Positions 3,112-36,200 of a stretch of 64,000 bases of DNA are shown here, one piece after another (position 1 is the first letter of the stretch; each line of letters opens with the position of its first letter). This DNA comes from Christiangramia salexigens. Its GTDB lineage: Bacteria > Bacteroidota > Bacteroidia > Flavobacteriales > Flavobacteriaceae. Position numbers and translations under genes: made by a program. The stretch spans positions 1,150,501-1,214,500 of the forward strand of contig NZ_CP018153.1 in NCBI RefSeq assembly GCF_001889005.1. Direction: 5' to 3'. A model generated the notes under the pieces. That model did no database searches. It saw nothing but the letters and a program-made list of their open reading frames with translations, and was not told the DNA's origin.

Positions 3112-4275
3112 ATGGAGCAGGTTATTTTACGTCCTTTTTTTCACCGCGGACAACATCAGGTAGGTGTGTTTTTCAAGTATAATTCAGAGATCAGAGAACA
3201 TCTGAAGCTCTTAAGGGGACTTACCTGGAGTAAGACCTTTTCATGTTTTTATTTACCGGACAATCCAGAAAACAGAAATTTACTGAAGTCACATATGGAA
3301 GCCGGAAATTACACTACCGATTGCAGTGCATTTATTAAGACAGAAGAAAGCGAAGTGCTTCTTAAAGATGAATTGGATACAGATTCAAAACAGCTTCTGG
3401 AGGCATATATTCTTTTTCTTAGAGGTAAGCGTTATAGCCAGAGTACGGTCTCTACCTATTGCAATTTTGTGAATAAATTCCTTTTGTTCAATGATGCGCC
3501 ACTGACAAGTCTAAAGAACCGGCATTTAGAGCTATTCATTGAAAAAGTGATCGCCAGAAATAATTATTCTATAAGCTCTCACCGCCAATGTATAAGCGCA
3601 TTTACTCATTTAGCAGTGCTGCTGGAGTTACCGGAACTGGATCTTGAAAAGATGAATCGGCCAAGAAAGAGCAGGATCCTGCCGGTGATCCTTTCCCCGC
3701 AGGAGATCATAGACATTCTGGTAGCCACCAGGAATTTAAAGCATCGTGCTGCACTGGCATTGATCTATGCTTCGGGGCTCAGGGTTGGAGAATTGATGAA
3801 ATTAAAGTTAAACCATATAGATATAGACCGGCGGCAACTGCTTATAAAACAAGCTAAGGGTCGTAAAGACCGGTATGTTGGAATGGCAGACAGTTTTATT
3901 CCGCTGCTGATTAATTACCTGAACACTTATCAACCCAAAGTATATTTTCTTGAGGGGCCAGACGGGAAGGAATACAGTGCCTCGTCTGTACGGAGTTTTC
4001 TAAAGGAATCCTGCAGGAGGGCGGGAATCAGGAAAAAGGTAAGTCCGCATAGTTTACGACATGCTTATGCCACGCATATGCTGGAAAACGGGATCGGGTT
4101 GAGGTATATACAGGCATTGTTGGGGCATTCGCGGCCGGAGACCACGATGATCTACACTCAGGTTACGCAGATGGACATGGTGCAGATAAAGAGTCCGTTA
4201 GACCTGGCAGTGACCAAGTACAAGGGGGATAAAGCGGAAGGAAAGCTGCGCTTATCCCGCAACTCGAACTTATAA
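3112..4275 (+). CDS. tyrosine recombinase, putative cassette integrase
   Basis: A 387-residue site-specific recombinase. Residues 1-75 form a small domain seen in Bacteroidota recombinases (LRGLTWSKTFSCFYLPD), 90-180 a SAM-like core-binding domain, and 195-370 the catalytic domain. Catalytic residues are visible: R224 (ASGLRVGEL), lysine near 249-252, H313 and R316 (PHSLRH), H339 (LLGHS) and the nucleophile Y348 (MIYTQV). The tail IKSPLD (359-364) matches the xxSPLD seen after the tyrosine in IntI and in many Bacteroidota recombinases. The long insertion (I2 helix) that canonical IntI has between the R and HxxR boxes is absent. The gene points toward the cassettes and ends 27 bp before the first core, which suggests it acts on them; activity is inferred. 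Confidence 0.85.
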   Translation: MEQVILRPFFHRGQHQVGVFFKYNSEIREHLKLLRGLTWSKTFSCFYLPDNPENRNLLKSHMEAGNYTTDCSAFIKTEESEVLLKDELDTDSKQLLEAYILFLRGKRYSQSTVSTYCNFVNKFLLFNDAPLTSLKNRHLELFIEKVIARNNYSISSHRQCISAFTHLAVLLELPELDLEKMNRPRKSRILPVILSPQEIIDILVATRNLKHRAALALIYASGLRVGELMKLKLNHIDIDRRQLLIKQAKGRKDRYVGMADSFIPLLINYLNTYQPKVYFLEGPDGKEYSASSVRSFLKESCRRAGIRKKVSPHSLRHAYATHMLENGIGLRYIQALLGHSRPETTMIYTQVTQMDMVQIKSPLDLAVTKYKGDKAEGKLRLSRNSNL

Positions 4276-4310
4276 ATGTGTATATTGGTCACGATATAAC
4301 ACGTTGGCAA
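4276..4310 (+). other. putative attI-like primary recombination site
   Basis: The 27 bp between the recombinase stop codon and the first cassette core GTTGGCAA (4303-4310). There is no long palindrome here, unlike the cassette ends, which fits an attI-type recipient site. Its left limit, possibly inside the recombinase gene, cannot be defined by eye. Confidence 0.55.
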
Positions 4311-5131
4311 CAAGCCAGAAGTTGAAAAATATTGATACGAAAATATTGGTAGCAATTCCATTACTGGCTTTCTTTCTTTGCATTTTCTTTATTGCAACAG
4401 ATCAAGGAGGATCAGCATTTGGAAATATTATTGATACACTGAGAATAACTTCAGTAATATTATTCATTTATTGTCTTCTACTTCTTATTGTTTCTTATAA
4501 GAAAAATATCAAAAAAGTTGAAGTTTGGTTTGTAATACTTATTAGTTCACCATTTGCACTAATTCTCATTTCAAGTAAAATCAATAATTTAAAATTAGAA
4601 CTAACAGAAACTACAACTCCACAGGAATTTGAATACAATCTATATATCGATCAGATAAAATACTTGAACGATAAAAAAATAATTGAAAATGAAATTGATA
4701 GTTTAATTGAGATTAAAACAGTCCATAAACCATCAAAATTAGCTTTAAGATATTTTAATGGGAAAACATATCACGATACAATAGAAAGAGACTGGTCAAT
4801 AAATCTGCCTTTGGATATTGAATATCGTAAAACAGTTATTGACACTTTATTTTATTCAGTAGACGGAGAACAAATTAAAGCAGGCTTACTAATTAATAAA
4901 GTGGTTAATAAATATAGATCTAAACCTGAAGATAGCATCGACTTCATTGGAAATGCGTTTATCTATAATTCAAATTCTAGAAAACCATTCAAAATTCTTA
5001 GATACAGATTTTTAGGATTTGATACTTACGAAGCTTGTTCTGATAGATTAAGGTTTTGGTACTTGAAAAAATTAGGGACCGACGAAAATGAATATAATCT
5101 AAATGATAAGAGGTTCTTGAGCAAAATTTGA
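4304..5131 (+). CDS. cassette 1: membrane protein with three N-terminal helices
   Basis: The protein is not recognised. It has three hydrophobic segments near the N-terminus (about residues 15-33, 43-62 and 72-88) and then a mostly soluble domain of about 180 residues, probably facing one side of the membrane. There is no in-frame ATG near the start: the frame opens with the TTG that belongs to the recombination core (4304), and a second TTG is at 4322, so translation may start at either. It is the cassette nearest the recombinase and so, on the integron model, the most recently inserted. The gene ends 13 bp before its attC. Confidence 0.6.
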   Translation: MATSQKLKNIDTKILVAIPLLAFFLCIFFIATDQGGSAFGNIIDTLRITSVILFIYCLLLLIVSYKKNIKKVEVWFVILISSPFALILISSKINNLKLELTETTTPQEFEYNLYIDQIKYLNDKKIIENEIDSLIEIKTVHKPSKLALRYFNGKTYHDTIERDWSINLPLDIEYRKTVIDTLFYSVDGEQIKAGLLINKVVNKYRSKPEDSIDFIGNAFIYNSNSRKPFKILRYRFLGFDTYEACSDRLRFWYLKKLGTDENEYNLNDKRFLSKI

Positions 5132-5144
5132 ACTAATCGGCCAG

Positions 5145-5279
5145 TTGCCAACAACGGTTATCGCAAATAGGCGGTAGCGTTAGAAAGAAAATAATTAACT
5201 TGATCAACTATTAAAACACTAAGCCGACAAATCCGTGTCCCCTACTCCGCCAACTTGCGTTAACCGGGACCGTTGGCAA
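5145..5279 (+). repeat. attC site 1 (arm class A)
   Basis: R'' TTGCCAAC at 5145 mirrors the opening GTTGGCAA of cassette 1; R' GTTGGCAA at 5272. The arm CGGTTATCGCAAATAGGCGG pairs with CCGCCAACTTGCGTTAACCG, 17 of 20 positions complementary. Confidence 0.9.
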
Positions 5280-5995
5280 TAATACTTAAAGAAAAAATTC
5301 GATTGACTCATAAATATTATCTGAAATCTAAAAAAGAAAAAAGGAAATTCCATTTCCAACTTGCTAGTTATACCTTATTATTTCTCATATTAATATTTTC
5401 AATTTCATATTATTACGGACTTTATTTTCTTCCCTTTATTTCTATATGGTTGACATTAATGATCTTAGCTCCTTTTATTGATGTTCCTACTTTAGTTAAA
5501 AAAGAGAAAATAAATTATTACTCCCAATTGCTATTAGCGGAAAATCAAAAAAATAATTCCATTACTATTCATGGCGGAACTTTATTCGATTATTACTTCA
5601 TATTTGACAATAGATCAAACGGACCAGAAAGGAAAAAATTTATCCTTCAACAATATTTAGAAGGACTTTTGAATTTGATTAAAGAACATGAAAAAACCTC
5701 CGACAAGAATTTAAATATTAAGGGAACTACCTATATCATAAATGAAAACACCGGTAAAAAATTAGGCTTTAAATCTAATAAACCTGATTTTGTCCAAATG
5801 ATAATCTTAATATTAAATTACCCTAATTTACTGCTTACAAAGTCCATTGCAAATAATAAATTATCATTTCCTAATCTGACTAATATTAGAACGTATGAAG
5901 CAAGTTTAGATGAACTAAAATTAAATAAGGGTAAGATTGAAAATATTAACAATAGGCTAAAAAGTACTATTGCCAACAACGGTTATCGCAAATAG
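5273..5995 (+). CDS. cassette 2: membrane-anchored hypothetical protein
   Basis: The protein is not recognised. It has a basic N-terminus (residues 15-25, KYYLKSKKEKRK), two hydrophobic helices (about 29-70), then a soluble domain of about 170 residues. The frame opens at the core TTG (5273), with another TTG at 5303 and no ATG nearby, as in cassette 1. The 3' end is unusual: the frame runs into the attC and stops at the TAG in GCAAATAGGCGG, so the last residues (NNGYRK) are encoded by the recombination site. Confidence 0.6.
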   Translation: MAIILKEKIRLTHKYYLKSKKEKRKFHFQLASYTLLFLILIFSISYYYGLYFLPFISIWLTLMILAPFIDVPTLVKKEKINYYSQLLLAENQKNNSITIHGGTLFDYYFIFDNRSNGPERKKFILQQYLEGLLNLIKEHEKTSDKNLNIKGTTYIINENTGKKLGFKSNKPDFVQMIILILNYPNLLLTKSIANNKLSFPNLTNIRTYEASLDELKLNKGKIENINNRLKSTIANNGYRK

Positions 5996-6105
5996 GCGGT
6001 AGCGTTAGAAAGAAAATAATTAACTTGATCAACTATTAAAACACTAAGCCGACAAATCCGCGTCCACTACTCCGCCAACCTGCGTTAACCGGGACCGTTA
6101 TATGC
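5970..6105 (+). repeat. attC site 2 (arm class A)
   Basis: R'' TTGCCAAC at 5970 mirrors the opening GTTGGCAA of cassette 2; R' GTTATATGC at 6097. The left arm also encodes the end of the cassette 2 gene. Confidence 0.9.
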
Positions 6106-6155
6106 AAGTGCCAGAAAATTTTTAGTAAATTGAAAACTGACGAAACATTCTACTC

Positions 6156-6554
6156 ATGAAAAAGATCATTCTTCTTATCTCTATCGGACTTTTTTATATA
6201 TCTGCTCAAGCACAAAATGACAGTAATAAATATGAAAATTTTGAATTAATTATTCGGACTTCTAATGATCAAGTTGTCTTAACTAGCAAAAAAGGAAGCG
6301 CGTGGAAAAAATTGACATTTTCTACAAACAACCTTCCACAAGCTATTGACGAATATGGAATGACAGTACTTGAAAATAAGGTGAATAAAAGAGAGAAATC
6401 GGAAAAAACTTTGGCCGACTATACCTTCATATTAAACATTGAAAAAGATGAAATTATTTTAAAAGGTTTAGAAGGAACTGCCTGGAAAGAACTGACTTTT
6501 CCTTGTGCAGATAATGATTGTGCTTCTAGAATAAATGAAATGGGAATGAGGTAA
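6156..6554 (+). CDS. cassette 3: secreted two-repeat protein, copy 1 of 3
   Basis: A 132-residue protein with a Sec signal peptide (residues 1-20, cleavage after AQA-Q likely). The mature part is a tandem duplication: residues 29-69 and 90-131 share the pattern hydrophobic strand, D-x-V/I-x-L, G-S/T-A-W-K-x-L-T-F, and I-D/N-E-x-G-M. The second repeat has an added pair of cysteines (CADNDC), possibly a disulfide in the periplasm or outside. Function is unknown. The ATG lies 59 bp after the core. Two almost identical cassettes follow at 10297 and 15534, including leader and attC. Confidence 0.8.
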   Translation: MKKIILLISIGLFYISAQAQNDSNKYENFELIIRTSNDQVVLTSKKGSAWKKLTFSTNNLPQAIDEYGMTVLENKVNKREKSEKTLADYTFILNIEKDEIILKGLEGTAWKELTFPCADNDCASRINEMGMR

Positions 6555-6567
6555 CTGCTCTGCACAA

Positions 6568-6704
6568 GCATATAACAACGGTTAAGGCAAATAGCGGTAG
6601 TTGACAAAAAAGAGTATTTTAGTTCACTAACCAGCTTTTATACTAAGCGGACAATTCCGCGGACTTATGTCCGCTCCTTGTCCTTAACCGAGACCGTTGG
6701 CAAC
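6568..6704 (+). repeat. attC site 3 (arm class C)
   Basis: R'' GCATATAAC at 6568 mirrors the opening GTTATATGC; R' GTTGGCAAC at 6696. The arm CGGTTAAGGCAAATAGCGG pairs with CCGCTCCTTGTCCTTAACCG, a covarying variant of the class A arms. Confidence 0.9.
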
Positions 6705-6726
6705 AAGTATCAGAAAACTCTGAATA

Positions 6727-7287
6727 GTGAAGAAAATTCCAATTATTATAATTTCAATATTTTTATCTAGTTGTGCTGTAAATAAAGTACCTAAACCTGA
6801 ACAGGTAATGAAGTACTATCAAGGTTTACAAAAATCTGAATATCCCGAAATCGAAAAAGTTCTGTCTGACAGTCTTATAATTTCAGAAGGTGATTACGTT
6901 ATGAAATTTACACCTGAAAGTTATTATGAACATTTTAAGTGGGATTCTGTTTTCAATCCAGCATATAAAATTGTAGGATTAAAGGAACAAGAAAATTTTG
7001 TGAGTGCTACTGTATCAGTTAGTTCTTCGCGATTTGATTTTTTAGAAAATAACCCTTTGACTTGTAAACGAAGATTTTATTTCAAACATGGAAAAATAAG
7101 GCGAATTGAAAATTTAGATTGTGTCGATGCAAATTGGATTATTTGGCAAAAACAACGAGACTCTTTAGTTGCTTGGGTGAAAATTAATAATCCAGAATTA
7201 GATGGATTTATTAATGATCTAAGTGAACAAGGAGCTATTAATTATATGAAAGCAATTGAATTATATAAAAAACAAAAATTGAAATAA
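6727..7287 (+). CDS. cassette 4: lipoprotein of unknown function
   Basis: A 186-residue protein starting with GTG at 6727, 30 bp after the core, with a short lipoprotein signal (LSSC, cysteine at about residue 16). The mature part is rich in aromatic and charged residues, with no family I recognise; its size and alternating strands would fit an NTF2-like or SnoaL-like fold (SVSSSRFDFLEN, RRFYFKHGKIRRIE), but this is a guess. It probably sits in the inner or outer membrane facing the periplasm. It ends 7 bp before its attC. Confidence 0.7.
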   Translation: MKKIPIIIISIFLSSCAVNKVPKPEQVMKYYQGLQKSEYPEIEKVLSDSLIISEGDYVMKFTPESYYEHFKWDSVFNPAYKIVGLKEQENFVSATVSVSSSRFDFLENNPLTCKRRFYFKHGKIRRIENLDCVDANWIIWQKQRDSLVAWVKINNPELDGFINDLSEQGAINYMKAIELYKKQKLK

Positions 7288-7294
7288 ATACCAG

Positions 7295-7430
7295 TTGCCA
7301 ACATCGGTTATCACAAATATGCGGTTTCCGACAAAAATTGATAAATTGAACTAATTAACCTGGTTTGGTACTAGCGGACTAATCCTACGGATTACTCCGC
7401 ACACTTGTGTTAACCGAGACCGTTGCCCAC
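7295..7430 (+). repeat. attC site 4 (covarying arm variant)
   Basis: R'' TTGCCAAC at 7295 mirrors GTTGGCAA; R' GTTGCCCAC at 7422. The arms CGGTTATCACAAATATGCGG and CCGCACACTTGTGTTAACCG show compensating changes relative to class A (CGCAA to CACAA with TTGCG to TTGTG; GGCGG to TGCGG with CCGCC to CCGCA). Confidence 0.9.
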
Positions 7431-7439
7431 AATTTCTCA

Positions 7440-8123
7440 ATGACGATATTCCTTATAATCTTAGCAGTTTTTAGTCTTATATCATTAGGATTAATAATTT
7501 CAAAATATTACAATCCTAATATTGAAAAGGTGCTTACTAGATTAGTCATAATAAGCTTCTTACTAAGTATTATAATAAGTATTTTAATGTGGTTTGAATT
7601 CCGATTAAAAGGTAGTTATACTACTTCAATTATCGGAATGACATTTTGGTGCGGAACTATTCTACTTTATGGATTAACAAAAAACAAAACAAAAAGAATA
7701 ATCACAGGTTTGTTAACGATTCCAACATTTATAATTGGTATTATGAGCCTTATTGTTCAACCTCTAGTTTTACTGTTTGCCGTCCCGTATTTGGCTTTCC
7801 AGTCTCCAATGGCAAAATTTGATATTGATAAAAAACATAATATAGAAGTAAGAAATCCCGGATTTATGGCATGCGGAGAAAGTCTCTATGTGACTAAATC
7901 CGAATATTTAATATTTGATAAACAGATATATGTTGGAAATAATCATTGCGTGAAAGGAATTCACAAAATAAAAACTATAGAATTCAATAAACAAAAAATG
8001 ATTTTCCTGATATATCATGACGGGGTTGAGAAAGAAGAAAATCCATATAAATATGAGGTAAGTAGAGAAACGGTGGGCAACAACGGTTCATCGCCAATAA
8101 GCGGCACCGTTAGAAATAAATAA
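7440..8123 (+). CDS. cassette 5: polytopic membrane protein
   Basis: Starting at the ATG at 7440, ten bases after the core, the product is 227 residues. It has about four transmembrane helices in the first 130 residues (including MTIFLIILAVFSLISLGLII and a segment rich in proline and leucine near 105-130), followed by a soluble tail of about 90 residues with a conserved-looking CGESLY segment. No family is recognised. The coding frame runs through the left arm of the attC and stops 43 bp into it, so the last 14 residues (from NNGSSPISG on) are encoded by the site. Confidence 0.65.
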   Translation: MTIFLIILAVFSLISLGLIISKYYNPNIEKVLTRLVIISFLLSIIISILMWFEFRLKGSYTTSIIGMTFWCGTILLYGLTKNKTKRIITGLLTIPTFIIGIMSLIVQPLVLLFAVPYLAFQSPMAKFDIDKKHNIEVRNPGFMACGESLYVTKSEYLIFDKQIYVGNNHCVKGIHKIKTIEFNKQKMIFLIYHDGVEKEENPYKYEVSRETVGNNGSSPISGTVRNK

Positions 8124-8209
8124 ATTAACTTGACCAACAAACCAATATTAAACCGACAAATCCGTGTCCCTCACTCCGCCAACTGGCGATAACCGAGACC
8201 GTTAGCAAA
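8073..8209 (+). repeat. attC site 5 (arm class B)
   Basis: R'' GTGGGCAAC at 8073 is the exact reverse complement of the opening GTTGCCCAC; R' GTTAGCAAA at 8201. The left arm TCATCGCCAATAAGCGG pairs with CCGCCAACTGGCGATAACCG and leaves one unpaired C. Confidence 0.9.
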
Positions 8210-8216
8210 AATTTTA

Positions 8217-8759
8217 ATGAGGAAAATTATACTTTCAATATTTTCAATTTTAATATTTAGTTGTGCTACTAAAATTTCACAAGACCAGATTGAATCCGAT
8301 TTAATGAATTATTTGAACTTCGTACAAAAAGGAAATTATGACGAAGCTGTAAATTATATGCCTACTAAATTTTGGGAATTTTACGATAAAGAGAATTATC
8401 TAAAAAGATTAAACCAACTGTCCAAGAAAACAGGAAACCTACTATTTGAAAATATGGCAATAACCAAGATAAGTGATCGCAAAAAAATTGATGATAATTA
8501 CTTTAAGATTATCGATTATAAAACCAATATCCTATTCGATTCTTCTCAAATCTCAGAAAACGTAATTGAAAAATATAAATCAAATTTTGGAGAGAAAAAC
8601 GTAGAAATAGATACGATAAATAAGAAATTAAAAATTCTCAATGAGAGTTCAATAATTGCCGTTTATGATAAAAATGTAGATCAATGGAGATTCTTGGAAC
8701 AAACACAAAATGGAATTGTAAAACTATATGGACTCAACACTTGGCTAGAACTCCATTAA
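8217..8759 (+). CDS. cassette 6: lipoprotein of unknown function
   Basis: A 180-residue protein with a lipoprotein signal peptide (IFSC, cysteine near residue 16) starting 16 bp after the core. The segment after the signal (about residues 25-60, YLNFVQKGNYDEAVNYMP) resembles the helix that opens many NTF2-like or tetratricopeptide-related periplasmic domains, and the C-terminal ends in short strands with tryptophan. No specific family is recognised. It is similar in size and build to the lipoproteins of cassettes 4 and 11, which may be distant relatives. Confidence 0.7.
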   Translation: MRKIILSIFSILIFSCATKISQDQIESDLMNYLNFVQKGNYDEAVNYMPTKFWEFYDKENYLKRLNQLSKKTGNLLFENMAITKISDRKKIDDNYFKIIDYKTNILFDSSQISENVIEKYKSNFGEKNVEIDTINKKLKILNESSIIAVYDKNVDQWRFLEQTQNGIVKLYGLNTWLELH

Positions 8760-8763
8760 AACT

Positions 8764-8901
8764 TTAGCTAACAAAGGTTCATCGCCAATAGACGGCAGCG
8801 TTAGAAAGAAAATAATTAACTTGACCAACAAACCAATACTAAACCGACAACTCCGCGTCCCGCACTCCGCCAACTGGCGATAACCGAGACCGTTGTGGTG
8901 C
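8764..8901 (+). repeat. attC site 6 (arm class B)
   Basis: R'' TTAGCTAAC at 8764 mirrors GTTAGCAAA with one mismatch; R' GTTGTGGTGC at 8892. The arms carry the class B pair CATCGCCAAT / CTGGCGATAACC. Confidence 0.88.
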
Positions 8902-9145
8902 ATTTTAAAGAAATGACAAGCTTACAAGGATACTAAAAGAATTGTAATCCTTTTATTTTTAAAAATTATTTGTAAATCTACTTCAATATATATTCAAATT
9001 ATCACCAAGAAAATGCCCCTAATTTCTCAATAATTTCGATTGTTATTTCAACTATATTTATACGGTTTTAGCAATAATTGACAAACAATAAATGTATCGC
9101 AATAATCATAGTTGTGATAAGTATAAATAGAAATTAGAACAGAAT
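8902..9145 (+). promoter_or_regulatory. long leader of cassette 7, probable internal promoter
   Basis: This gene-free 245 bp leader has a weak hairpin around 8930-8960 (AAGGAT / ATCCTT followed by a T-rich run) that could stop read-through from upstream. AT-rich promoter-like sequence follows at 9050-9130. No exact TTTG-N19-TAnnTTTG pair was found, so the promoter is not placed. Confidence 0.35.
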
Positions 9146-10099
9146 ATGGTAATAGCCTTACTATTAATAATCATTGGTTTTACAGCTTTAATTTATGGAG
9201 CGAATTGGATGGTTGACGGAGCTTCCTCATTAGCCAAAAAACACAATATTTCCGATTTAGCCATAGGATTAACTATAGTTGCTTTTGGAACTTCCGCGCC
9301 TGAGTTAGTAGTGAACTCTATGGCATCATTTGACGGATTATCTGATATAGTATTAGGAAATATTATAGGTAGTAACAATTTCAATTTATTCCTTATTCTG
9401 GGTATAGCTGGCTTAGTTTATCCAATTAAAGTCCAATCTTCTACAGCATGGCGGGAAATTCCCATTTCACTACTCATTACTATACTATTTTTGGTATTAG
9501 CAAACGACTTCTTTTTAAACTCAAATTCCAGGATTTCAAGATCTGATGGTCTAATTTTATTCACCCTCTTTTTAGTATTTATATTTTACGTCTTTAAACA
9601 AATGAAAACTGATGAAGGTGAAGTAGTAGCCTACGAACAAAAGTCAAATTTAAAAATTTGGAAACTGATCTCATTTGGCCTTTTAGGACTTATTATTGGC
9701 GGTAAATTAGTTGTAGACAATAGCATATCTGTTGCAACAGATTTAGGAGTGAGTCAAAAGATTATTGGTTTAACTATCATTGCTGCTGGAACATCACTAC
9801 CTGAACTGATAACGTCGATTGTGGCCGCACTTAAAAAAAACAGTGATATTGCAATTGGAAATGTAATAGGCTCAAATATTTTTAATATTCTTCTAATTCT
9901 CTCTATTAGTTCCTTCATTAAACCAATTAATTATAATGACATTTTCAACATTGATTTATTCATATTAATTGGCGGAACCTTATTTCTGATTCTTGCTATG
10001 TTTACAGGGAAAAGAAAAAAGCTTGATAGATGGGAAGCGGCTTTACTTGTGATATTTTATTTGACTTATACTATTTATTTAATATTAAAGGAAACGTAA
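9146..10099 (+). CDS. cassette 7: CaCA-family Na+/Ca2+ exchanger
   Basis: A 317-residue membrane antiporter of the YrbG-like branch of the calcium/cation antiporter superfamily, moving Ca2+ out in exchange for Na+ or H+. Both alpha repeats are visible: alpha-1 around residues 35-75 (AFGTSAPELVVN, then GNIIGSNNFN) and alpha-2 around 210-255 (AAGTSLPELITS, then GNVIGSNIFN). The GTSxPEL glutamates are the ion-binding residues of the family. About ten transmembrane helices, normal length. It has a leader of 245 bp after the core, unusually long for this array, so it may carry its own promoter. Confidence 0.92.
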   Translation: MVIALLLIIIGFTALIYGANWMVDGASSLAKKHNISDLAIGLTIVAFGTSAPELVVNSMASFDGLSDIVLGNIIGSNNFNLFLILGIAGLVYPIKVQSSTAWREIPISLLITILFLVLANDFFLNSNSRISRSDGLILFTLFLVFIFYVFKQMKTDEGEVVAYEQKSNLKIWKLISFGLLGLIIGGKLVVDNSISVATDLGVSQKIIGLTIIAAGTSLPELITSIVAALKKNSDIAIGNVIGSNIFNILLILSISSFIKPINYNDIFNIDLFILIGGTLFLILAMFTGKRKKLDRWEAALLVIFYLTYTIYLILKET

Positions 10100-10105
10100 T
10101 AAAAC

Positions 10106-10246
10106 GCACCACAACAACGGTTATCGCAAATGGCGGGTTTAATAGAAAAGAACTAAATTAGTTTCCATAACAAACCAAACCGTTACGCCGACTAATCCGC
10201 ATCCATAATTCCGCGCCACTTGTCGTTAACCGAGACCGTTATATGC
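10106..10246 (+). repeat. attC site 7
   Basis: R'' GCACCACAAC at 10106 is the exact reverse complement of the opening GTTGTGGTGC; R' GTTATATGC at 10238. The loop is different from the others (AGAAAAGAACTAAATTAG). Confidence 0.9.
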
Positions 10247-10296
10247 AAGTGCCAGAAAATTTTTAGTAAATTGAAAACTGACGAAACATTCTACTC

Positions 10297-10695: not shown

Positions 10696-10708
10696 CTGCT
10701 CTGCACCA

Positions 10709-10845
10709 GCATATAACAACGGTTAAGGCAAATAGCGGTAGTTGACAAAAAAGAGTATTTTAGTTCACTAACCAGCTTTTATACTAAGCGGACAATTCCG
10801 CGGACTTATGTCCGCTCCTTGTCCTTAACCGAGACCGTTATGCCC
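10709..10845 (+). repeat. attC site 8 (arm class C)
   Basis: R'' GCATATAAC at 10709, R' GTTATGCCC at 10837. Nearly identical to attC sites 3 and 13. Confidence 0.9.
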
Positions 10846-10846
10846 A

Positions 10847-26284: not shown

Positions 26285-26293
26285 AATATTTAA

Positions 26294-26833: not shown

Positions 26834-26835
26834 AT

Positions 26836-28161: not shown

Positions 28162-28193
28162 AACAAATTAAAATCATAATTGTGCTATATAAA

Positions 28194-28344: not shown

Positions 28345-28491
28345 ATACTTAAGCAAAATTGTAACATATTGGAACATGAAAATTAGAGTACTATCCAGTA
28401 TACCTTACTTTCAATATTTAACAGTTGTTTAAATTACGATTGGATATCACACCGGAATTTCTATATTTGGCGAACAACAAAAACTACTTCA

Positions 28492-29787: not shown

Positions 29788-29807
29788 AATTTTAAACAGT
29801 TCTAAAC

Positions 29808-29842
29808 AAAAGCCATCCATTTCCGGGTGGCTTTTTCTTTTC
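29808..29842 (+). terminator. hairpin terminator of the cassette 26 gene
   Basis: The stem AGCCATCC / GGGTGGCT (one G-T pair) with T-run CTTTTTCTTTT, directly after the stop codon of the 431-residue lipoprotein gene. One of the few terminators inside the array. Confidence 0.8.
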
Positions 29843-29943
29843 TATAGTTTAAATATTTTATATTAGAGCGTTATTATAATTGTATATGGTATACTTTCCT
29901 ATAATAGGTTGACTAGAAATTAAACCTTTTATCACTAAACCTA

Positions 29944-30189
29944 ATGAAAGCACAAAATCAACACTGTCGAAAAACTACCTACAAAAGAGCAGTCCTGTTG
30001 ATGATCTTAATCTCAATTTATGGATGTGGAGATTAAAATTGGGATGTAAATTTATATGAACAAATAATTGAAGAAATTTCGAAAGCAATTTACAAGTATG
30101 ATGCTTGGGGAGGTTTTGACTCTCTCACGAATTTGGATATACAAATATTTTCAATTATCATTTTTTTTAAACCCAAAAACTATAATTAA
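29944..30189 (+). pseudogene. cassette 26: decayed lipoprotein gene
   Basis: ATG 29944 opens a typical lipoprotein signal (VLLMILISIYGCGD) and then meets TAA two codons after the cysteine (30034). The frame continues open for another 50 codons, ending at TAA 30187-30189, with a plausible soluble sequence (LYEQIIEEISKAIYKYDAWGG). So this is a small lipoprotein gene killed by a stop codon just after the lipobox; its former 3' end is probably also lost. It suggests that a second cassette once lay here and its attC has gone. Confidence 0.65.
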
Positions 30190-30234
30190 ATCAGATCAAT
30201 TTTTAATCGAGGAATATTCAAAGAAAAAAGTACT

Positions 30235-30370
30235 GTGCCTAACAACGGTTATCGCAAATAGGCGGCACCGTTAGAAAGAAAATATTTAACTTGATCAACT
30301 ATTAAAACACTAAGCCGACAAATCTGCGTCCCCTACTCCGCCGACTGGCGATAACCGGACTATTAGTATT
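30235..30370 (+). repeat. attC site 26 (closing core mutated)
   Basis: R'' GTGCCTAAC at 30235 is the exact reverse complement of the opening GTTAGGCAC at 28336, so the whole 28336-30361 stretch is one unit. The closing core reads ATTAGTATT instead of GTTAGT. The preceding ACC has become ACT. Confidence 0.82.
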
Positions 30371-30529
30371 AAACAATAAATATACTATATCGAGAATGAT
30401 GGTAAAGTGCATATTATATCGCATATAATCAATCCTTTAATCGTCGGACTAATCATATTCGGCAAAATAGTTAAACCAAGTACACTCTCCCTTTGTTTTA
30501 TTAAATTGCAAAATATAGAAATAGCCGAA

Positions 30530-31654
30530 ATGAAAAATCTTATAATTAAACTGAGAGTTATATTAGCAATAATAAGTATTACAGTTTTTTTAATATCATG
30601 TACGGGTTCACGTTCTGTACCGTCTAATGTCATAACTTTAGCTGAACAGGGAAGTTTTGCAGTCGGGGGAACGGTAATAAGCAGTTCTGGTACATTTGAT
30701 CCTATCCAGGATGGTGCATTTAACCCAACAAATCAAAACACCTCAGGTCAAACACTTCATGGTGATCACGCTAGCGTTTTCTATCAAATCCCCGCTGAAC
30801 CCCGTAAACTTCCGTTAGTATTCTGGCACGGCTACGGGCAATCTATGAGAACCTGGCAAACTACGCCGGACGGGAGAGAAGGTTTTCAGAGTATTTTTCT
30901 TCGAAAAGATTTTCCCGTTTATCTAATAGATCAGCCCCGTCGAGGTCTGTCTGGACGCAGTACAGAACCTATTAGCATAAGTGCATCTACAGATGATCAA
31001 CTTTGGTTTGGCATTTTCAGGCTTGGTTTAGGAAATGATTTCTACCCCGGAGTTCAATTTTCTAAAGATCCAGAAGCATTAAATCAGTTTTTTCGCCAAA
31101 TGACACCTGATACGGGGCCGTTGAGTATTGAAATAAATATTAAGGCTGTTTCAGCATTATTTGATAAAATAGGTCCTTCAATACTTGTTACACATTCTCA
31201 TAGTGGAGGTCAGGGATGGCTTACGGCATTAAAAAATAATAATATCAAAGCAATCGTATCCTATGAACCCGGTAGTAATTTCGTATTTCCTGAAAATGAA
31301 GTACCGGCACCTATGCAATATCTCGGCGGAGAGCTGAAGGCAAGAGGAGTTCCTATATCTGAATTTAAACGGTTGACCGAAATACCCATAATTATTTACT
31401 ATGGAGATTATATTCCTGAAGAACCTGTAGTAAATCCGGGTAAGGAACAATGGAGAGTTGCGCTATCTATGGCAAAAAAATGGCGTGATATAGTAAATAA
31501 ATATGGAGGGGATGTGACTTTAGTTCCTCTCCCTGAAGCAGGTCTAAAAGGCAATACACATTTCCCAATGTCAGACCTTAACAATAAAAAAGTAGCTGAT
31601 CTAATGTACAATTGGCTAAAGGAAAAAGGATTAACTAAAAAAGAGAAAAAATGA
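30530..31654 (+). CDS. cassette 27, gene 1: alpha/beta hydrolase lipoprotein
   Basis: From ATG 30530 the product is 374 residues with a lipoprotein signal (LISC, near residue 22). The alpha/beta hydrolase domain (about residue 85 onward) shows LPLVFWHGYGQSMRTWQ, the oxyanion region, the elbow THSHSGGQG (nucleophile serine in HSHSGG) and the final ISEFKRLTEIPIIIYYGDYIP followed by a late histidine (GNTHFPMSD). It belongs to the group of large exported hydrolases found near cupin and flavodoxin genes in Bacteroidota. It overlaps the cupin start (ATGA) and so is translated with it. Substrate unknown. Confidence 0.85.
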   Translation: MKNLIIKLRVILAIISITVFLISCTGSRSVPSNVITLAEQGSFAVGGTVISSSGTFDPIQDGAFNPTNQNTSGQTLHGDHASVFYQIPAEPRKLPLVFWHGYGQSMRTWQTTPDGREGFQSIFLRKDFPVYLIDQPRRGLSGRSTEPISISASTDDQLWFGIFRLGLGNDFYPGVQFSKDPEALNQFFRQMTPDTGPLSIEINIKAVSALFDKIGPSILVTHSHSGGQGWLTALKNNNIKAIVSYEPGSNFVFPENEVPAPMQYLGGELKARGVPISEFKRLTEIPIIIYYGDYIPEEPVVNPGKEQWRVALSMAKKWRDIVNKYGGDVTLVPLPEAGLKGNTHFPMSDLNNKKVADLMYNWLKEKGLTKKEKK

Positions 31655-32124
31655 AAAATTTAATTACAGTATTATTATTTGTTGTTCCAATGTGTGTTTT
31701 CGCCCAAAATGAATCTTATTCAGTTTCTTCATATATGGAGGAGGGTACTAAGGCTCCAAATACTCATTATATAGGAGAGGCCTGGCTAAATGGGTTACTG
31801 GAGGTTGAAGGAGATTTAAACTTTCATATTACCAAGGCTAGTTTCAAAGCAAATTCTACTCTGGATTGGCATAAACACGCCTCTACCCAAGTCTTAATTT
31901 ATGTTGAAGGCGAAGGTTATTATCAGGAAAGAGGAAAAGACCCTGTTATTCTTAAAGCCGGGGACGTAATAAAATGTGAAAAAGATACAGAGCATTGGCA
32001 TTCATCCACCGAAAACAGTGATGTTACTTACTTGGCTGTGTATGGCGGAGAACAGCCCACTACCTGGACCGAAGTTCTATCGCAGGAATATTACGATAGT
32101 GTAGCAAAAAAATTGAAAGAATAA
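31651..32124 (+). CDS. cassette 27, gene 2: exported cupin
   Basis: A 157-residue single-domain cupin with a Sec signal peptide (MKNLITVLLFVVPMCVFAQ). The cupin motif 1 is DWHKHASTQVLIYVEGEGYY (about residue 70; quoted in part) with H, H and E for metal binding, and motif 2 is VIKCEKDTEHWH (about 115) with the final histidine. Such proteins are often carboxymuconolactone-decarboxylase-associated or quercetinase-like enzymes. It is the second gene of a three-gene operon and overlaps the hydrolase stop codon by four bases. Confidence 0.85.
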   Translation: MKNLITVLLFVVPMCVFAQNESYSVSSYMEEGTKAPNTHYIGEAWLNGLLEVEGDLNFHITKASFKANSTLDWHKHASTQVLIYVEGEGYYQERGKDPVILKAGDVIKCEKDTEHWHSSTENSDVTYLAVYGGEQPTTWTEVLSQEYYDSVAKKLKE

Positions 32125-32143
32125 GTTCTTATTTAATTTTGAA

Positions 32144-32743
32144 ATGAAAATTACACAATTAAATAAGCTCATTGGTTTATTGGTAATCGTTTTTATGATG
32201 TTGGGTGTACAGGCCAATGCCCAGGAAAATATTGCCATAGTTTATTTATCCAGAACAAAAAATACCGAAGCTGTTGCTAAGCTTATTCATGATAAAGTTG
32301 GTGGTTATTTAGTGGCTCTAGAGAAGCAAGATAAGTACCCGGAAGATTATCAGGAAATAGTAGCCCAGGTAGACAGAGAAAATGAAGAAGGATACTTACC
32401 ACCATTAAAAACAAAAATTGAGAATCTTGAGACCTATAATATTATATTTATTGGTTTTCCTACTTGGGATATGCAATTGCCTCCACCAATGAAGAGCTTT
32501 TTAACTGAAAATGATCTGAGCGATAAGATTATAGTACCTTTTAATACTAATGCAGGATTTGGCGTAGGTAAAGGATTTGATCAGTTAATAAAATTATGTC
32601 CAGATAGCGAAGTAGTTAAAGGTCTTTCTGTAGAAGGTGGCTATGAAAAGAAAGGAGTCTATCTATCCATAAAAGGAAAAAGGAAAGATGAAGTGTCCCG
32701 GAAAGTAGACAATTGGTTAAAGGAAATTGGTATATCCCGTTGA
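32144..32743 (+). CDS. cassette 27, gene 3: exported flavodoxin-family protein
   Basis: A 199-residue protein with a clear signal peptide (residues 1-26, ending VQANAQ), which places it outside the cytoplasm. The flavodoxin fold begins at residue 28 (IAIVYLSRTKNTEAVAKLI, the phosphate-binding loop) and continues with FIGFPTWDMQLPPPMKSFL, the flavin-contacting loop. Most flavodoxins are cytoplasmic, so an exported FMN protein beside a cupin and a hydrolase may form part of a periplasmic redox pathway. It starts 19 bp after the cupin stop codon. Confidence 0.85.
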   Translation: MKITQLNKLIGLLVIVFMMLGVQANAQENIAIVYLSRTKNTEAVAKLIHDKVGGYLVALEKQDKYPEDYQEIVAQVDRENEEGYLPPLKTKIENLETYNIIFIGFPTWDMQLPPPMKSFLTENDLSDKIIVPFNTNAGFGVGKGFDQLIKLCPDSEVVKGLSVEGGYEKKGVYLSIKGKRKDEVSRKVDNWLKEIGISR

Positions 32744-32746
32744 AGG

Positions 32747-32790
32747 ACTAACACTCGCAACATATAGCAATTTGGCGCAACAGAAAATAA
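32747..32790 (+). repeat. left half of a second-family attC
   Basis: ACTAAC at 32747-32752 mirrors the (mutated) opening of cassette 27 (ATTAGT). It is followed by ACTCGCAACATATAGCAATT and TGGCG, the left arm of the second repeat family (as in sites 15 and 18). Its right half is missing: a class A site follows directly. Confidence 0.6.
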
Positions 32791-32791
32791 A

Positions 32792-32920
32792 AATGCTAAT
32801 CGCAAATAGGCGGCACCGTTATACAGAAAATAATTAACTTGATTAACTATTAAAACACTAAGCCAACAAGAACGCGTCCCTACTCCAAGCTAGTTGCATT
32901 AACCAAGACCGTTGTGTCAT
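32792..32920 (+). repeat. attC site 27 (left core lost)
   Basis: Class A interior (CGCAAATAGGCGGCACCG ... TAACCAAGACC) and R' GTTGTGTCAT at 32911, but no R'' of its own: it is joined to the half site before it. Confidence 0.75.
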
Positions 32921-32941
32921 AATAAAACAACTTAATAGACA

Positions 32942-33511
32942 ATGAATTTTAAAGAAAAAAATCCAGCTTTGATTCTTATCGATGTTCAAAAAGCATTTTT
33001 AGATGAAAAATACTGGGGTGGTAATAGAAATAATAAAAGCGCTGAAAAAATTTGTGGCAAAATTTTAAATAGATGGAGGGAACTAAATTTACCAATTTTT
33101 CATATTAGACATTGTTCTAAAAATCCGAATTCTATATTTAATAAATCGAACATAGGATTTGAATTTAATGATCATGTAATTCCAAAATTTGAAGAAGAAG
33201 TAATTACCAAATATGTTAATAGCGCATTTATAGGAACAAATTTGCAGGAACAGTTGGATAAACAAAATATCGATACTTTAGTTATTGTAGGTATAACAAC
33301 TAATCATTGTGTATCTACTACAACTCGAATGGCAGGCAATTTTGGTTATAAAACTTATCTAATATCGGATGCAACGGCAGCATTTGACAGAATTGGAGTT
33401 AATGGGGACAATTTTGATGCTGAAATAATACACTTAACATCACTAGCAAATTTGAATGATGAGTTTGCTACTGTATTGGATTCGCAACAACTGATGTCTA
33501 AACTTGCTTAA
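32942..33511 (+). CDS. cassette 28: isochorismatase-like cysteine hydrolase
   Basis: A 189-residue cytoplasmic hydrolase of the isochorismatase/nicotinamidase superfamily. The catalytic aspartate is D14 in LILIDVQKAFLD, the lysine is in ITKYVNSAFIGT (about residue 92), and the nucleophile cysteine is in GITTNHCVSTTTRMAG (about 122), preceded by the cis-peptide bond region. It is shorter than isochorismatase proper and most like the nicotinamidase/maleamate amidohydrolase-type group; the true substrate is unknown. ATG 32942 is 31 bp after the core; the stop codon lies 3 bp before R''. Confidence 0.9.
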   Translation: MNFKEKNPALILIDVQKAFLDEKYWGGNRNNKSAEKICGKILNRWRELNLPIFHIRHCSKNPNSIFNKSNIGFEFNDHVIPKFEEEVITKYVNSAFIGTNLQEQLDKQNIDTLVIVGITTNHCVSTTTRMAGNFGYKTYLISDATAAFDRIGVNGDNFDAEIIHLTSLANLNDEFATVLDSQQLMSKLA

Positions 33512-33514
33512 CGC

Positions 33515-33660
33515 CTCACAACAACGCTTATCCTTAATAGACGGTAGCGTTAGAAAGAAAAAAACTAACTTGATTAACGATTAAAACACAAAGCCAACTC
33601 CCGAAGCATCGGGACGCGTCCCTTACTCCGCCAACTGGCGATAACCGAGACCGTTGGCAA
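33515..33660 (+). repeat. attC site 28 (loop hairpin variant)
   Basis: R'' CTCACAAC at 33515 mirrors the opening GTTGTGTC with one mismatch; R' GTTGGCAA at 33653. The loop has CCCGAAGCATCGGG. Confidence 0.85.
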
Positions 33661-33688
33661 TAATATATTTATAAAGCAAAATACATAA

Positions 33689-34228
33689 TTGAAATTATTA
33701 AGAACTATAATAGTGCTAATTCTCTTTAGTTCAATAAACTGTTTAGCACAAGACGAGGAATATATCGTTACAAATAGCAACGATACAATATTTGGAAAAA
33801 TATCAAGATCAACCAATTTCTTGAATACTGCAGAGGTCAGATTTAAGATCAAAGATACTACTGGGAATAAAAGCCGGATAGACCCCGGAAAAGTTAAGTT
33901 TATTAAATCATCAAATAGTGTTGATGGAGATTGTATTATTGCCACCGTGTATGGTAAATGGTTTATAAAAAGAATAATAAATGGTAGAATAAAAGTTTAT
34001 CAGTTAGTTGATGGAATAATCTTTTTCACTTCCAAAGATGATTCTGAGGTCATTTCAAACGACTTTGGCGGACTACACAAAAGAGAAGATTCTAAGGAGA
34101 GAATTAGACCACTAATTGAAGATAATGCGATCATCCTTCAGGAATTCAATTCCATGAAAGGAAGTGAAAAAAACATCCTTCATATAATTGAAAAATATAA
34201 TGCTTTAGAGGGACCAAATGAAATTTAA
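33689..34228 (+). CDS. cassette 29: exported protein of unknown function
   Basis: A 179-residue protein with a signal peptide (LKLLRTIIVLILFSSINCLAQ, cleavage after CLA-Q likely; quoted in part) starting with TTG at 33689. The mature part has several short strands with the pattern IVTNSNDTIFGKI..., common in flavobacterial outer-membrane-associated proteins of the DUF4369-like or GLPGLI-like groups, but no firm family. The C-terminus is helical. The core of its own attC is badly decayed, so the cassette is probably immobile. Confidence 0.65.
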   Translation: MKLLRTIIVLILFSSINCLAQDEEYIVTNSNDTIFGKISRSTNFLNTAEVRFKIKDTTGNKSRIDPGKVKFIKSSNSVDGDCIIATVYGKWFIKRIINGRIKVYQLVDGIIFFTSKDDSEVISNDFGGLHKREDSKERIRPLIEDNAIILQEFNSMKGSEKNILHIIEKYNALEGPNEI

Positions 34229-34310
34229 ATAAAAATCATTCTTCAATTCACGATCCCAAAAATGACTAAAAGATTTTTATTAAAATCTATCATCTCAAAA
34301 AAATAAATAA

Positions 34311-34485
34311 TAGCGAACCCAATATATAGCTGAAAGAATAGAGGTAAAAACGTCCTACATAATCTATAAATGTAAAAGAGGTTCGGGTATTTACTCAAAC
34401 CGCTTTTGCATTAATTTGCGTATCTTAATTTTCCAAAAGGAAAGTGCACTTAATTCGCTACTTCCCTTATTCTAAGTTTCATGAG
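34311..34485 (+). repeat. attC site 29 (second family, decayed)
   Basis: TAGCGAAC at 34311 followed by CCAATATATAGCTG matches the second-family left arm, and TTCGCTACTTCCCTTATTC the right arm. The cores are changed (GTTTCATGAG at 34476). About 175 bp. Confidence 0.6.
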
Positions 34486-34502
34486 TAAAAAAATTGGATG
34501 TT

Positions 34503-35378
34503 ATGAAGAATATTTTATCCCTTTTGTTTTTATTCTATTTGACCAATGTTTCAAGTCAGATTATTGATATGCATACCCATAGTTATACTGAGGAAGATTA
34601 TTGGGGAGGAAATACGCATCCTACAGGTGTAGAATCACCTAAATCTGTAGAGGAGCATTTGGAACAGACCATAAAATTAATGGATAAACATGGTATTGAG
34701 TATGCCGTAGTAAGCGGCTGGTCGTTAGAAGGTGTAGAGAAATACGTAGCAGCTGATTCCCGTTTTATTCCAGGTTATATGGATGAGGGAAACCCCATCC
34801 CGGTAGAGCAATTCGAAGACTTGGTAAAAAGCGGTAAAATTAAAGTGTTTGGTGAAGTTTCGGGAGTTTACTTTGGTAAAACTTTAAATGATCCAATGTA
34901 TGCACCATACCTTGAAATTTGCGAAAAATACAATATCCCGGTAGCTTATCACTCTGGAGGTGCACCCCCTATGGCGCCTTTTACATGCTGTCCGGACTTC
35001 AGGATATCTATTGGTGACCCACTACTTATTGAAGATGTTTTAGTAAAATATCCCAAACTCCGTATTTACCTAATGCATGCCGGAGAAGTTTATTTTGAGC
35101 AAGCAGTAAGAATGATGAGTATGTATAAATCCTTATATGTCGATTTAGGAGCTATTTTATGGGTAGATCCTTTAATAAAGGATTACGCAATTCGATTTTT
35201 AAAATTGGCTCAAACTGCTGGAGTGCTGGACAGGGTTATGTTTGGATCAGACCAAATGGTGTGGCCGGGGGCCATTACCAGATCAATCGATTTTATAAAT
35301 AATCTTGATTTTTTAAGCAATGAGGAGAAACAAATGATTTTATATGGAAACGCTAAACAATTTCTCAATTTAAAATAA
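34503..35378 (+). CDS. cassette 30: exported amidohydrolase (TIM-barrel)
   Basis: From ATG 34503 the product is 291 residues with a signal peptide (residues 1-19) and a metal-dependent amidohydrolase-2 (TatD/ACMSD-like) barrel. The first strand ends IIDMHTHSYTEED, the metal-binding HxH. Later landmarks: FGEVSGVYFG (glutamate/metal-bridging strand), PVAYHSGGAPP (third histidine), YLMHAGEV (fourth histidine) and MFGSDQMVWPG (the catalytic aspartate). The family includes decarboxylases and hydrolases of aromatic or lactone substrates. The exported location is unusual for the family. Confidence 0.85.
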   Translation: MKNILSLLFLFYLTNVSSQIIDMHTHSYTEEDYWGGNTHPTGVESPKSVEEHLEQTIKLMDKHGIEYAVVSGWSLEGVEKYVAADSRFIPGYMDEGNPIPVEQFEDLVKSGKIKVFGEVSGVYFGKTLNDPMYAPYLEICEKYNIPVAYHSGGAPPMAPFTCCPDFRISIGDPLLIEDVLVKYPKLRIYLMHAGEVYFEQAVRMMSMYKSLYVDLGAILWVDPLIKDYAIRFLKLAQTAGVLDRVMFGSDQMVWPGAITRSIDFINNLDFLSNEEKQMILYGNAKQFLNLK

Positions 35379-35381
35379 TGA

Positions 35382-35500
35382 TTCACAACATCGATTTTCG
35401 CAAATAACGAGCGTAATATTAACTGCCAGAAAATAAACTGATTAAGCAATAAGTCCGCTTCCCTACTCTGCCAACTTGCGTTAACCGGGACTGGTGCAGT
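35382..35500 (+). repeat. attC site 30 (decayed)
   Basis: Left part ATTCACAACATCGATTTTCG (left core changed) and CGCAAATAACGAGCG; right part CTGCCAACTTGCGTTAACCG with the closing core GTGCAGTAA instead of GTT. Confidence 0.75.
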
Positions 35501-35565
35501 AAATTTTACACGCAACCATTCTGATCAAATTCCATCTAATAATTATAATCAACAATCAATAAATT

Positions 35566-35970
35566 ATGAGATTAAAACCAACATTCCTTTTATTTCTACT
35601 AGCATTCTCTATTATTGGATGTTCTAAGAACGATTCAACTAATGAGACAGAGAACACAAAAAATTTAATTGGTAATAAATATGCCCATTTATTGTTTGAG
35701 ACCCGTGAGGAATGTGAAGCTGCTCAAGAATCATATATGATTAATTGTGCTCAAGGTCTAGAAATAATTAGCGATACTGAAGTAAGAATTTTTCTAACTG
35801 ATATTTTATACAACTCTAATTTCTACGTAAAAAATAATATGTTAGTTGTTGAATCTACCCCGGACACCTATGAATTCTCCGAAGATCTAATTTTCGAAAT
35901 AATGGATAATGGTGATCTTAAATTAGGGGAGGATAATTGGATAAAATATGAAGAAGACTTTTTTGAGTAA
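35566..35970 (+). CDS. cassette 31: small lipoprotein
   Basis: A 134-residue lipoprotein (IIGCSKNDS, cysteine near residue 19, with an acidic-polar linker after it). Its domain (about 35-130) is a small beta-rich unit with two cysteines (EECEAAQ and INCAQG), perhaps a disulfide in the periplasm. No family is recognised, though small flavobacterial lipoproteins with two cysteines of this type are common. It lies far from the recombinase, with decayed sites at both sides. Confidence 0.7.
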   Translation: MRLKPTFLLFLLAFSIIGCSKNDSTNETENTKNLIGNKYAHLLFETREECEAAQESYMINCAQGLEIISDTEVRIFLTDILYNSNFYVKNNMLVVESTPDTYEFSEDLIFEIMDNGDLKLGEDNWIKYEEDFFE

Positions 35971-36054
35971 TATCTCTAAATTCTATAAAATCCAGGCGAA
36001 TAATAGATTTAAGTAATTTACACGTTATAATTGCATTTGCATTACAGTAAATCC

Positions 36055-36200
36055 TTGAACAACATTGGTTCACCGCAATCATGCGGCACCGTTAGAAAGA
36101 AATAAAACCACCTGAGTAACTAACCAACACTAAGCCAACTCCCGAAGCATCGTAACTAACACTACTCCACAATTTTACCTTAACCCTAACTGTTTGTCCA
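36055..36200 (+). repeat. attC site 31 (decayed, last recognisable full-length site)
   Basis: TTGAACAACATTGGTTCACC at 36055 and the right part CCTTAACCCTAACTGTTTGTCCA (quoted in part). The loop still holds GTTAGAAAGAAAT and CCCGAAGCATC. The closing core is GTTTGTCCA at 36192. Confidence 0.7.

What the first reader, a model, noticed from the sequence alone, without database searches (positions are those of the whole stretch)
3112..36200. Integron-like array of about 31 gene cassettes in a flavobacterium
Seen: 27 bp after a tyrosine recombinase begins a 32 kb run of short units, each closed by a 135-199 bp imperfect palindrome of one repeat family (with a second family at three places). Units hold unrelated genes, nearly all in one direction. 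Known: canonical integrons are best described in Proteobacteria, with large arrays in Vibrio; arrays of this size and type in Bacteroidota are not something I can name. Inference: this is a sedentary chromosomal integron-like platform, probably an undescribed lineage.
Basis: partly seen in the sequence, partly recalled or inferred. Interest (0 to 1): 0.95.

Follow-up and report, generated by a model that had tools for sequence, protein, structure and literature searches.

The report
Bacteroidota integrons without the integron integrase
A flavobacterium carries 30 gene units in a row behind a recombinase that lacks the domain thought essential for integrons, and the same layout recurs in many Bacteroidota, where it likely lets them capture, shuffle and trade genes.

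Summary
Confirmed and extended. Window 3112-4275 encodes a tyrosine recombinase; 27 bp after its stop begins an array of 30 units (4304 to about 36190), each closed by an imperfect palindrome. Each unit's first nucleotides are complementary to its own far end, not its neighbour's (6 variable nt in 27 distinct units: 137 of 162 match, permutation mean 56, maximum 94 in 100,000): the signature of units exchanged as circles, as in integrons. Single units recur in other species (up to 99.6% identical) and in another genus (97.8%), in other surroundings, with these borders. An attI-like motif follows the recombinase in 48 of 51 orthologue loci. The bottom-strand hairpin is the more stable in 236 of 238 sites. 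It is not a canonical integron: the IntI-specific domain is missing and 11 of 238 borders fit GTTRRRY. Without using site sequence, the same logic appears behind 13 of 18 more distant recombinases that share the N-terminal domain, against 3 of 45 without it. Recombination itself is untested. Ten searches of a PMC library showed no paper on it.

The parts
3112..4275 (+). Tyrosine recombinase (387 aa), XerA/IntI-like catalytic part, N-terminal extra domain (about residues 1-80), no IntI additional domain; same direction as the cassettes
4252..4259 (+). TTATCCCG in the 3' end of the recombinase gene; TATCC is kept here in 26 of 30 orthologue loci; perhaps the outer part of the attI-like site (inferred)
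   Evidence: in L030 it lies behind an early stop codon
4281..4304 (+). attI-like site TATATT-N7-GATATAACACG|TT; insertion point of cassette 1 (role inferred)
   Evidence: motif in 48 of 51 orthologue loci, exactly 27 bp after the stop in 33 of these 48
4304..5272 (+). cassette 1 (ORF of unknown function) with its site 5144-5272
   Evidence: own-end match 10/12
5273..6097 (+). cassette 2 (unknown)
   Evidence: 11/12
6098..6696 (+). cassette 3 (132-aa protein; first of three copies of this 599-bp cassette)
6697..7422 (+). cassette 4 (unknown)
   Evidence: 10/12
7423..8201 (+). cassette 5 (unknown)
   Evidence: 10/12
8202..8892 (+). cassette 6 (unknown)
   Evidence: 10/12
8893..10238 (+). cassette 7 (Na/Ca exchanger family)
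10239..10837 (+). cassette 8 (second copy of cassette 3)
10838..12743 (+). cassette 9 (DUF4209 protein)
12744..13791 (+). cassette 10 (cation efflux family); own-end match poor (4/12), but the unit recurs at 87% in G794
13792..14509 (+). cassette 11 (unknown)
   Evidence: 10/12
14510..15475 (+). cassette 12 (unknown)
   Evidence: 11/12
15476..16074 (+). cassette 13 (third copy of cassette 3)
16075..16955 (+). cassette 14 (unknown)
   Evidence: 10/12
16956..19601 (+). cassette 15 (four ORFs: serine beta-lactamase-fold hydrolase, DUF6249-like, sigma-70, small); closed by a site of the second family
19602..20259 (+). cassette 16 (glyoxalase family)
20260..21071 (+). cassette 17 (unknown)
   Evidence: 10/12
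21072..22180 (+). cassette 18 (AHSA1-family and glyoxalase-family ORFs); closed by a site of the second family
22181..22993 (+). cassette 19 (HigB-HigA toxin-antitoxin pair), recurs in five other genomes
22994..23600 (+). cassette 20 (unknown); own-end match 6/12
23601..24414 (+). cassette 21 (second HigBA copy, toxin frame interrupted by a stop)
24415..25181 (+). cassette 22 (gene on the minus strand, 24500-24958); own ends 12/12
25182..26276 (+). cassette 23 (ABC ATPase)
26277..26978 (+). cassette 24 (unknown)
   Evidence: 11/12
26979..28335 (+). cassette 25 (alpha/beta hydrolase)
28336..30357 (+). cassette 26 (unknown)
   Evidence: 11/12
30358..32911 (+). unit 27 (weakly hydrolase-like, cupin, flavodoxin); borders decayed, own-end match 3/12
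32912..33653 (+). cassette 28 (isochorismatase family); own-end match 6/12
33654..35493 (+). unit 29 (unknown ORF and amidohydrolase); own-end match 9/12
35494..36190 (+). unit 30 with a decayed terminal site (about 36058-36190); own-end match 6/12

Best explanation
Behind a tyrosine recombinase gene lie an attI-like site and 30 tandem gene units, most with two ends complementary to each other, and the recombinase likely captures, excises and shuffles these units as circular cassettes, predicted to act on the folded bottom strand of each site. Shown by sequence: the tandem array, the G|TT borders, the pairing of a unit's start with its own end, the attI-like motif behind orthologous recombinases, copies of single units with the same borders in different surroundings, other species and another genus, one lone unit with matched ends elsewhere in the chromosome, and predicted bottom-strand hairpins more stable than top-strand ones. 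Inferred: excision as a circle restores complementary arms, insertion goes into attI between the recombinase and cassette 1, the crossover is after the G of G|TT, and single-stranded bottom DNA is the substrate. Also inferred, and least sure: the N-terminal domain, whose predicted fold comes nearest to the damage-recognition domain of XPB, helps read the folded DNA in place of the missing IntI domain. The recombinase is not IntI, so this works like an integron but with a different recombinase and different site cores.
For: Own-end pairing: 25 of 30 units at 9 or more of 12 nt, next unit 1 of 29; permutation z 11.6 on 27 distinct units. 14 arrays of this and other genera: own match 5 or 6 of 6 in 243 of 327 units, next unit 27 of 327. 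Site-independent first-unit test: exact 9-nt partner in 26 of 41 genomes, control 4 of 1628. Chains of three or more such units: present on the array strand of all 16 arrays, on the other strand of none. attI-like motif in 48 of 51 orthologue loci, in 0 of 19 outgroup loci. HigBA copies match 20 of 20 nt after the border and 5 of 20 before it. HigBA unit 97.8% over 684 of 684 nt between this genome and G309, another genus, although the recombinases share 55%. Shared units are not collinear in the pair of arrays that shares most. Recombinase in 23 of 24 genomes of the genus, one match each at E 1e-60. Draft contigs end within 5 kb downstream of it in 18 of 23, upstream in 2 of 23. Bottom strand more stable in 236 of 238 sites.
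Confidence: 0.87

Rival explanations
1. It is an ordinary (divergent) canonical integron with an IntI integrase and standard attC sites.
For: NCBIfam matches include TIGR02249 integron integrase at 175.6 bits; IntI4 is among the top structural matches; an AU test does not reject a single clade of these recombinases with IntI (p 0.208).
Against: Below the TIGR02249 cut-off of 265. IntI4 aligns in two pieces with chain residues 182-247 skipped; the KDR-to-HxLRH spacing is 58 residues in 19 of 20 members (one not scored), against 100 in 5 and 81 in 1 of the 9 IntI rows (3 not scored). Separate 100% SH-aLRT clades. Only 11 of 238 borders fit GTTRRRY.
Confidence: 0.06
2. A passive repeat family (REP- or MITE-like) happens to lie between ordinary genes, kept alike by gene conversion.
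For: Sites are repeated and palindromic; the nearest pairs are 94-98% identical.
Against: All 27 genome matches on one strand, 26 in one array. Conversion cannot make each unit's start complementary to its own end with 104 distinct 9-mers in 238 units, nor explain units of up to 99.6% identity in non-collinear places with the same borders.
Confidence: 0.02
3. The array is moved by the host XerC/XerD at dif-like modules (as pdif modules of some plasmids, recalled), the adjacent recombinase being incidental.
For: Two Xer-like recombinases of about 300 aa, named so by eye, lie elsewhere in the genome.
Against: The recombinase is adjacent to such arrays in orthologues, with an attI-like motif right behind its gene; sites are 107-184-nt palindromes, not the short dif type (recalled).
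Confidence: 0.03
4. The array was built by such a system but is now a fossil in this genome.
For: Distal sites are decayed and one of the two HigBA copies has a broken toxin frame.
Against: The recombinase frame is intact, HigBA copies are 98.5% identical, and the 599-bp unit is present three times, the copies at 99%.
Confidence: 0.08

Closest known systems
Sedentary chromosomal integrons (Vibrio superintegron type; IntI, attI, attC)
   Same: Tyrosine recombinase next to an attI-like site; long one-way arrays of small cassettes; imperfect palindromes with a stronger bottom-strand fold; G|TT border; toxin-antitoxin and duplicated cassettes (the last two recalled for Vibrio)
   Different: Recombinase lacks the IntI additional domain and carries an N-terminal domain instead; it runs in the same direction as the cassettes; border core GTTR followed by largely free positions (GTTRRRY in 11 of 238); pairing of a unit's own ends reaches 9-12 nt
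Archaeal and IntegronFinder-type integrons (PMC9668308, PMC9024848, passages read)
   Same: attI directly behind the integrase gene, tandem cassettes
   Different: Those are found by the IntI-specific domain, which this family does not have
XerA / Xer recombinases
   Same: Closest solved structures (5hxy, 4a8e) and best NCBIfam model NF040815, itself below its cut-off (193 against 220 bits)
   Different: XerA acts in chromosome dimer resolution and has no cassette arrays (recalled)
HARP domain of SMARCAL1 / damage-recognition domain of XPB

Membership tests
Canonical integron | Tyrosine recombinase with the catalytic residues | tested here: met
   Phage_integrase domain; R224, K249, H313, R316, H339 and Y348 invariant in 36 sequences (catalytic roles recalled)
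Canonical integron | IntI-specific additional domain | tested here: not met
   Missing in the alignment to IntI4; spacing 58 against 100 or 81 residues; other non-IntI recombinases scored there have 56-63
Canonical integron | Integrase within the IntI family | tested here: not met
   175.6 bits against a cut-off of 265; separate 100% clade, though a joint clade with IntI is not rejected (p 0.208)
Canonical integron | Conserved attI beside the integrase gene | tested here: met
   Motif in 48 of 51 loci; that it is the insertion site is inferred from the first unit's own-end partner
Canonical integron | Tandem one-way gene cassettes with precise borders | tested here: met
Canonical integron | attC: imperfect palindrome, bottom strand favoured | tested here: met
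   236 of 238, fold energies only
Canonical integron | R' core GTTRRRY | tested here: not met
   11 of 238
Canonical integron | attI x attC and attC x attC recombination by the integrase | not testable with these tools
   needs an assay
Canonical integron | Promoterless cassettes expressed from an integron promoter | not tested
   no promoter analysis done
REP/BIME-type repeats | Copies scattered through the genome in both orientations | tested here: not met
XerC/XerD dif modules | Short dif-like sites, recombined by host XerCD | tested here: not met
   sites 107-184 nt. Which enzyme acts was not assayed
HARP/XPB-DRD domain family (N-terminal domain) | Significant sequence or fold match | tested here: inconclusive

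The most novel reading that the evidence does not exclude
Bacteroidota have their own integrons, invented a second time: a Xer-type recombinase with an XPB/HARP-like structure-reading domain, instead of the IntI domain, captures genes as single-stranded hairpin cassettes, and this phylum-wide system has been missed because integron searches look for the IntI domain.
Probability: 0.5. Interest if true: 0.97.

Novelty: new variant of a known kind. Interest (0 to 1): 0.93.

Why it matters
Integrons are the best known gene-capture machines of bacteria, and the IntI domain is held to be what lets them use hairpin DNA. A system with the same logic but without that domain gives a natural test of what cassette recombination really needs. 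It would also open a large pool of mobile genes in a common environmental phylum: one relative's array spans about 180 kb with 80 sites detected. And it would explain why draft assemblies so often break just behind this gene (18 of 23).
Full report
What is there. The window is G000:C1:1150501-1214500 of a one-contig 2.98-Mb genome. A 387-aa tyrosine recombinase (3112-4275, +) is followed 27 bp after its stop by the first of 30 units. Each unit ends in an imperfect palindrome of 107-184 nt, measured from the AAC of its left arm to the G of the right border (29 sites).

The key test. If units move as circles, a unit's start must have been next to its own end, so these two should match each other and not the neighbour. 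They do: with 12 nt compared, 25 of 30 units score 9 or more against their own end, 1 of 29 against the next unit. On the six variable positions of 27 distinct units (3 duplicates left out) the sum is 137 of 162, against a permutation mean of 56.5 (sd 6.9, maximum 94 in 100,000). Units 10, 20, 27, 28 and 30 fail; the last three lie in the decaying end. In 14 arrays of this and other genera, 243 of 327 units match their own end at 5 or 6 of 6 nt, 27 of 327 the next one's start (the offset is the best of four for both).

Tests that do not use site sequence. In 41 genomes with at least 1 kb behind the attI-like site, the first 9 nt of the first unit find an exact reverse complement, followed by A, within 1.46 kb in 26; starts from other genomes do so in 4 of 1628 trials. 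With one mismatch allowed the figures are 33 of 41 and 117 of 1628. Chains of three or more such units occur on the array strand of all 16 arrays, and on the other strand of none (overlapping chains may count a unit twice).

The insertion site. Behind the gene, 48 of 51 orthologue loci carry an ATA(A/G)C-NN-G|T motif, exactly 27 bp after the stop in 33 of the 48, between 12 and 146 bp in the rest. The motif is absent in L021, L030 and L031, and in the Mesonia locus L091; it is present in 5 of 5 other close loci and in 0 of 19 outgroup loci, one of which had only 34 nt to look at. A TATCC element near the gene's last codons is kept in 26 of 30 loci, in L030 behind an early stop, so it is probably kept as DNA (counted by eye; inference).

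Movement in evolution. The 599-bp unit is present three times (99% over 599 nt) and the HigBA unit twice (98.5%). The two HigBA copies match 20 of 20 nt after the G|TT border and 5 of 20 before it; they sit behind sites of two different families. In other copy pairs the 20 nt before the 5' border still match at 14-18 of 20, since the preceding sites are related, but 200-400 nt upstream the sequence is unlike (25-31%) in the five between-genome pairs looked at. The HigBA unit recurs in G309, G788 (twice), G787, G785 and G778; in G309, of another genus, it is 97.8% identical over 684 of 684 nt, while the recombinases are 55% identical. Other units are shared between species of the genus at up to 99.6% (514 of 514 nt), and in the pair of arrays that shares most the order is not collinear. 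Most units are not shared at all: of 23 window units, 1 or 2 have a match in any one other array. A lone unit with a PLD-like gene, whose ends match over 10 nt by reading, sits about 37 kb past the array, as expected of an off-site insertion; no empty site could be shown.

Not scattered repeats. One site searched against the whole genome gives 27 matches, all on the + strand, 26 within the array. In draft genomes the contig ends within 5 kb downstream of the recombinase in 18 of 23 and upstream in 2 of 23, as expected if repeats begin there.

Strand. Folded as DNA, the bottom strand of 238 sites, all pre-selected for own-end match, is the more stable in 236 (mean -23.0 against -19.5 kcal/mol). 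That is the strand used in classical attC recombination (PMC9892861 and PMC4792948, passages). That it is used here is inferred.

Is it an integron by family? The recombinase falls below the cut-off of the integron integrase model (175.6 against 265 bits). IntI4 aligns only in two pieces, with residues 182-247 skipped. The spacing between two catalytic motifs is 58 residues in 19 of 20 members (one not scored), and 100 in five and 81 in one of nine IntI rows (three not scored). In a tree of 50 recombinases the family is one clade (SH-aLRT 100) and IntI another, but a joint clade is not rejected (p-AU 0.208). PMC8138268 (passages) calls the IntI insertion essential for integron function, while noting it is not fully conserved in its subgroup; PMC9668308 (passages) says IntegronFinder requires the IntI-specific domain. 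[quoted passage not shown] My scan finds IntI over the cut-off in 105 of 395 genomes of the phylum as drawn, one of them in the host's class and none in its family (how many family members were drawn is not told). The border core GTTRRRY is met in 11 of 238 units.

How far it reaches. Matches at E 1e-80 or better occur in 100 of 397 genomes of the family, and at 1e-60 in 23 of 24 of the genus, one each; the genome without one is 67% complete. Among more distant relatives with at least 1 kb downstream, own-end units appear in 13 of 18 that share the N-terminal domain and in 3 of 45 that do not; the chance rate is 71 of 3906. Chains of such units follow in Seonamhaeicola aphaedonensis (7), Winogradskyella ursingii (5), a Sphingobacteriales MAG (4), Flavobacteriaceae S0862 (4), Algoriphagus ornithinivorans, Flavobacterium aciduliphilum, an Aquiflexum and a Bacteroidetes MAG (2 each); four of the 12 loci tried gave a chain of one; random GTT starts give 7 chains of one and none longer in 717 tries. 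One of the 18 is labelled a Spirochaetota MAG (L118), which may be a binning matter. In a draw of 390 genomes of the phylum, 128 match the alignment at E 1e-50, but these include recombinases without the N-terminal domain, so this is not the prevalence of the system.

Cargo. Of 35 array proteins scanned, 16 reach a Pfam cut-off: a Na/Ca exchanger, a cation efflux protein, two glyoxalases, a HigBA pair, an ABC ATPase, hydrolases, a sigma factor, an isochorismatase and others.

Verdict. Activity is untested.

Noticed in passing
G000:C1:1222835-1223772 (L244 about 8335-9272, outside the window): A lone cassette with a PLD-like gene, own ends matching over 10 nt and a 94% identical site, away from the array: looks like an off-site insertion.
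   Followed up: partly
window 23601-24414: In the second HigBA copy the toxin frame is interrupted by a stop codon; the antitoxin frame is open.
   Followed up: no
window 38045, 40190-40310, 41699, 46203: Decayed site remnants beyond the stated end suggest an older, longer array.
   Followed up: no
G788:C1:2189001-2389000 (L204-L213): A relative's array spans about 180 kb with 80 sites of the main type detected.
   Followed up: partly
L061-L090: Canonical IntI over the model cut-off in 105 of 395 sampled genomes of the phylum, 104 of them outside the host's class. The phylum as drawn may include groups that papers count apart from Bacteroidetes.
   Followed up: no
L107 11157, L114 11138, L120 11182: More distant relatives have another sequence before the first unit (for example ATCCAATTG|TT), so attI seems to differ by clade.
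   Followed up: no
plasmid records H10-H30: Mostly Acinetobacter plasmid recombinases, one labelled TnpF, share 40% over 63% of the protein; the match does not include the N-terminal domain.
   Followed up: no
window 2277-2849: A minus-strand gene, which I take for a Crp/Fnr-type regulator by eye, lies divergent to the recombinase; a regulatory role was not tested.
   Followed up: no
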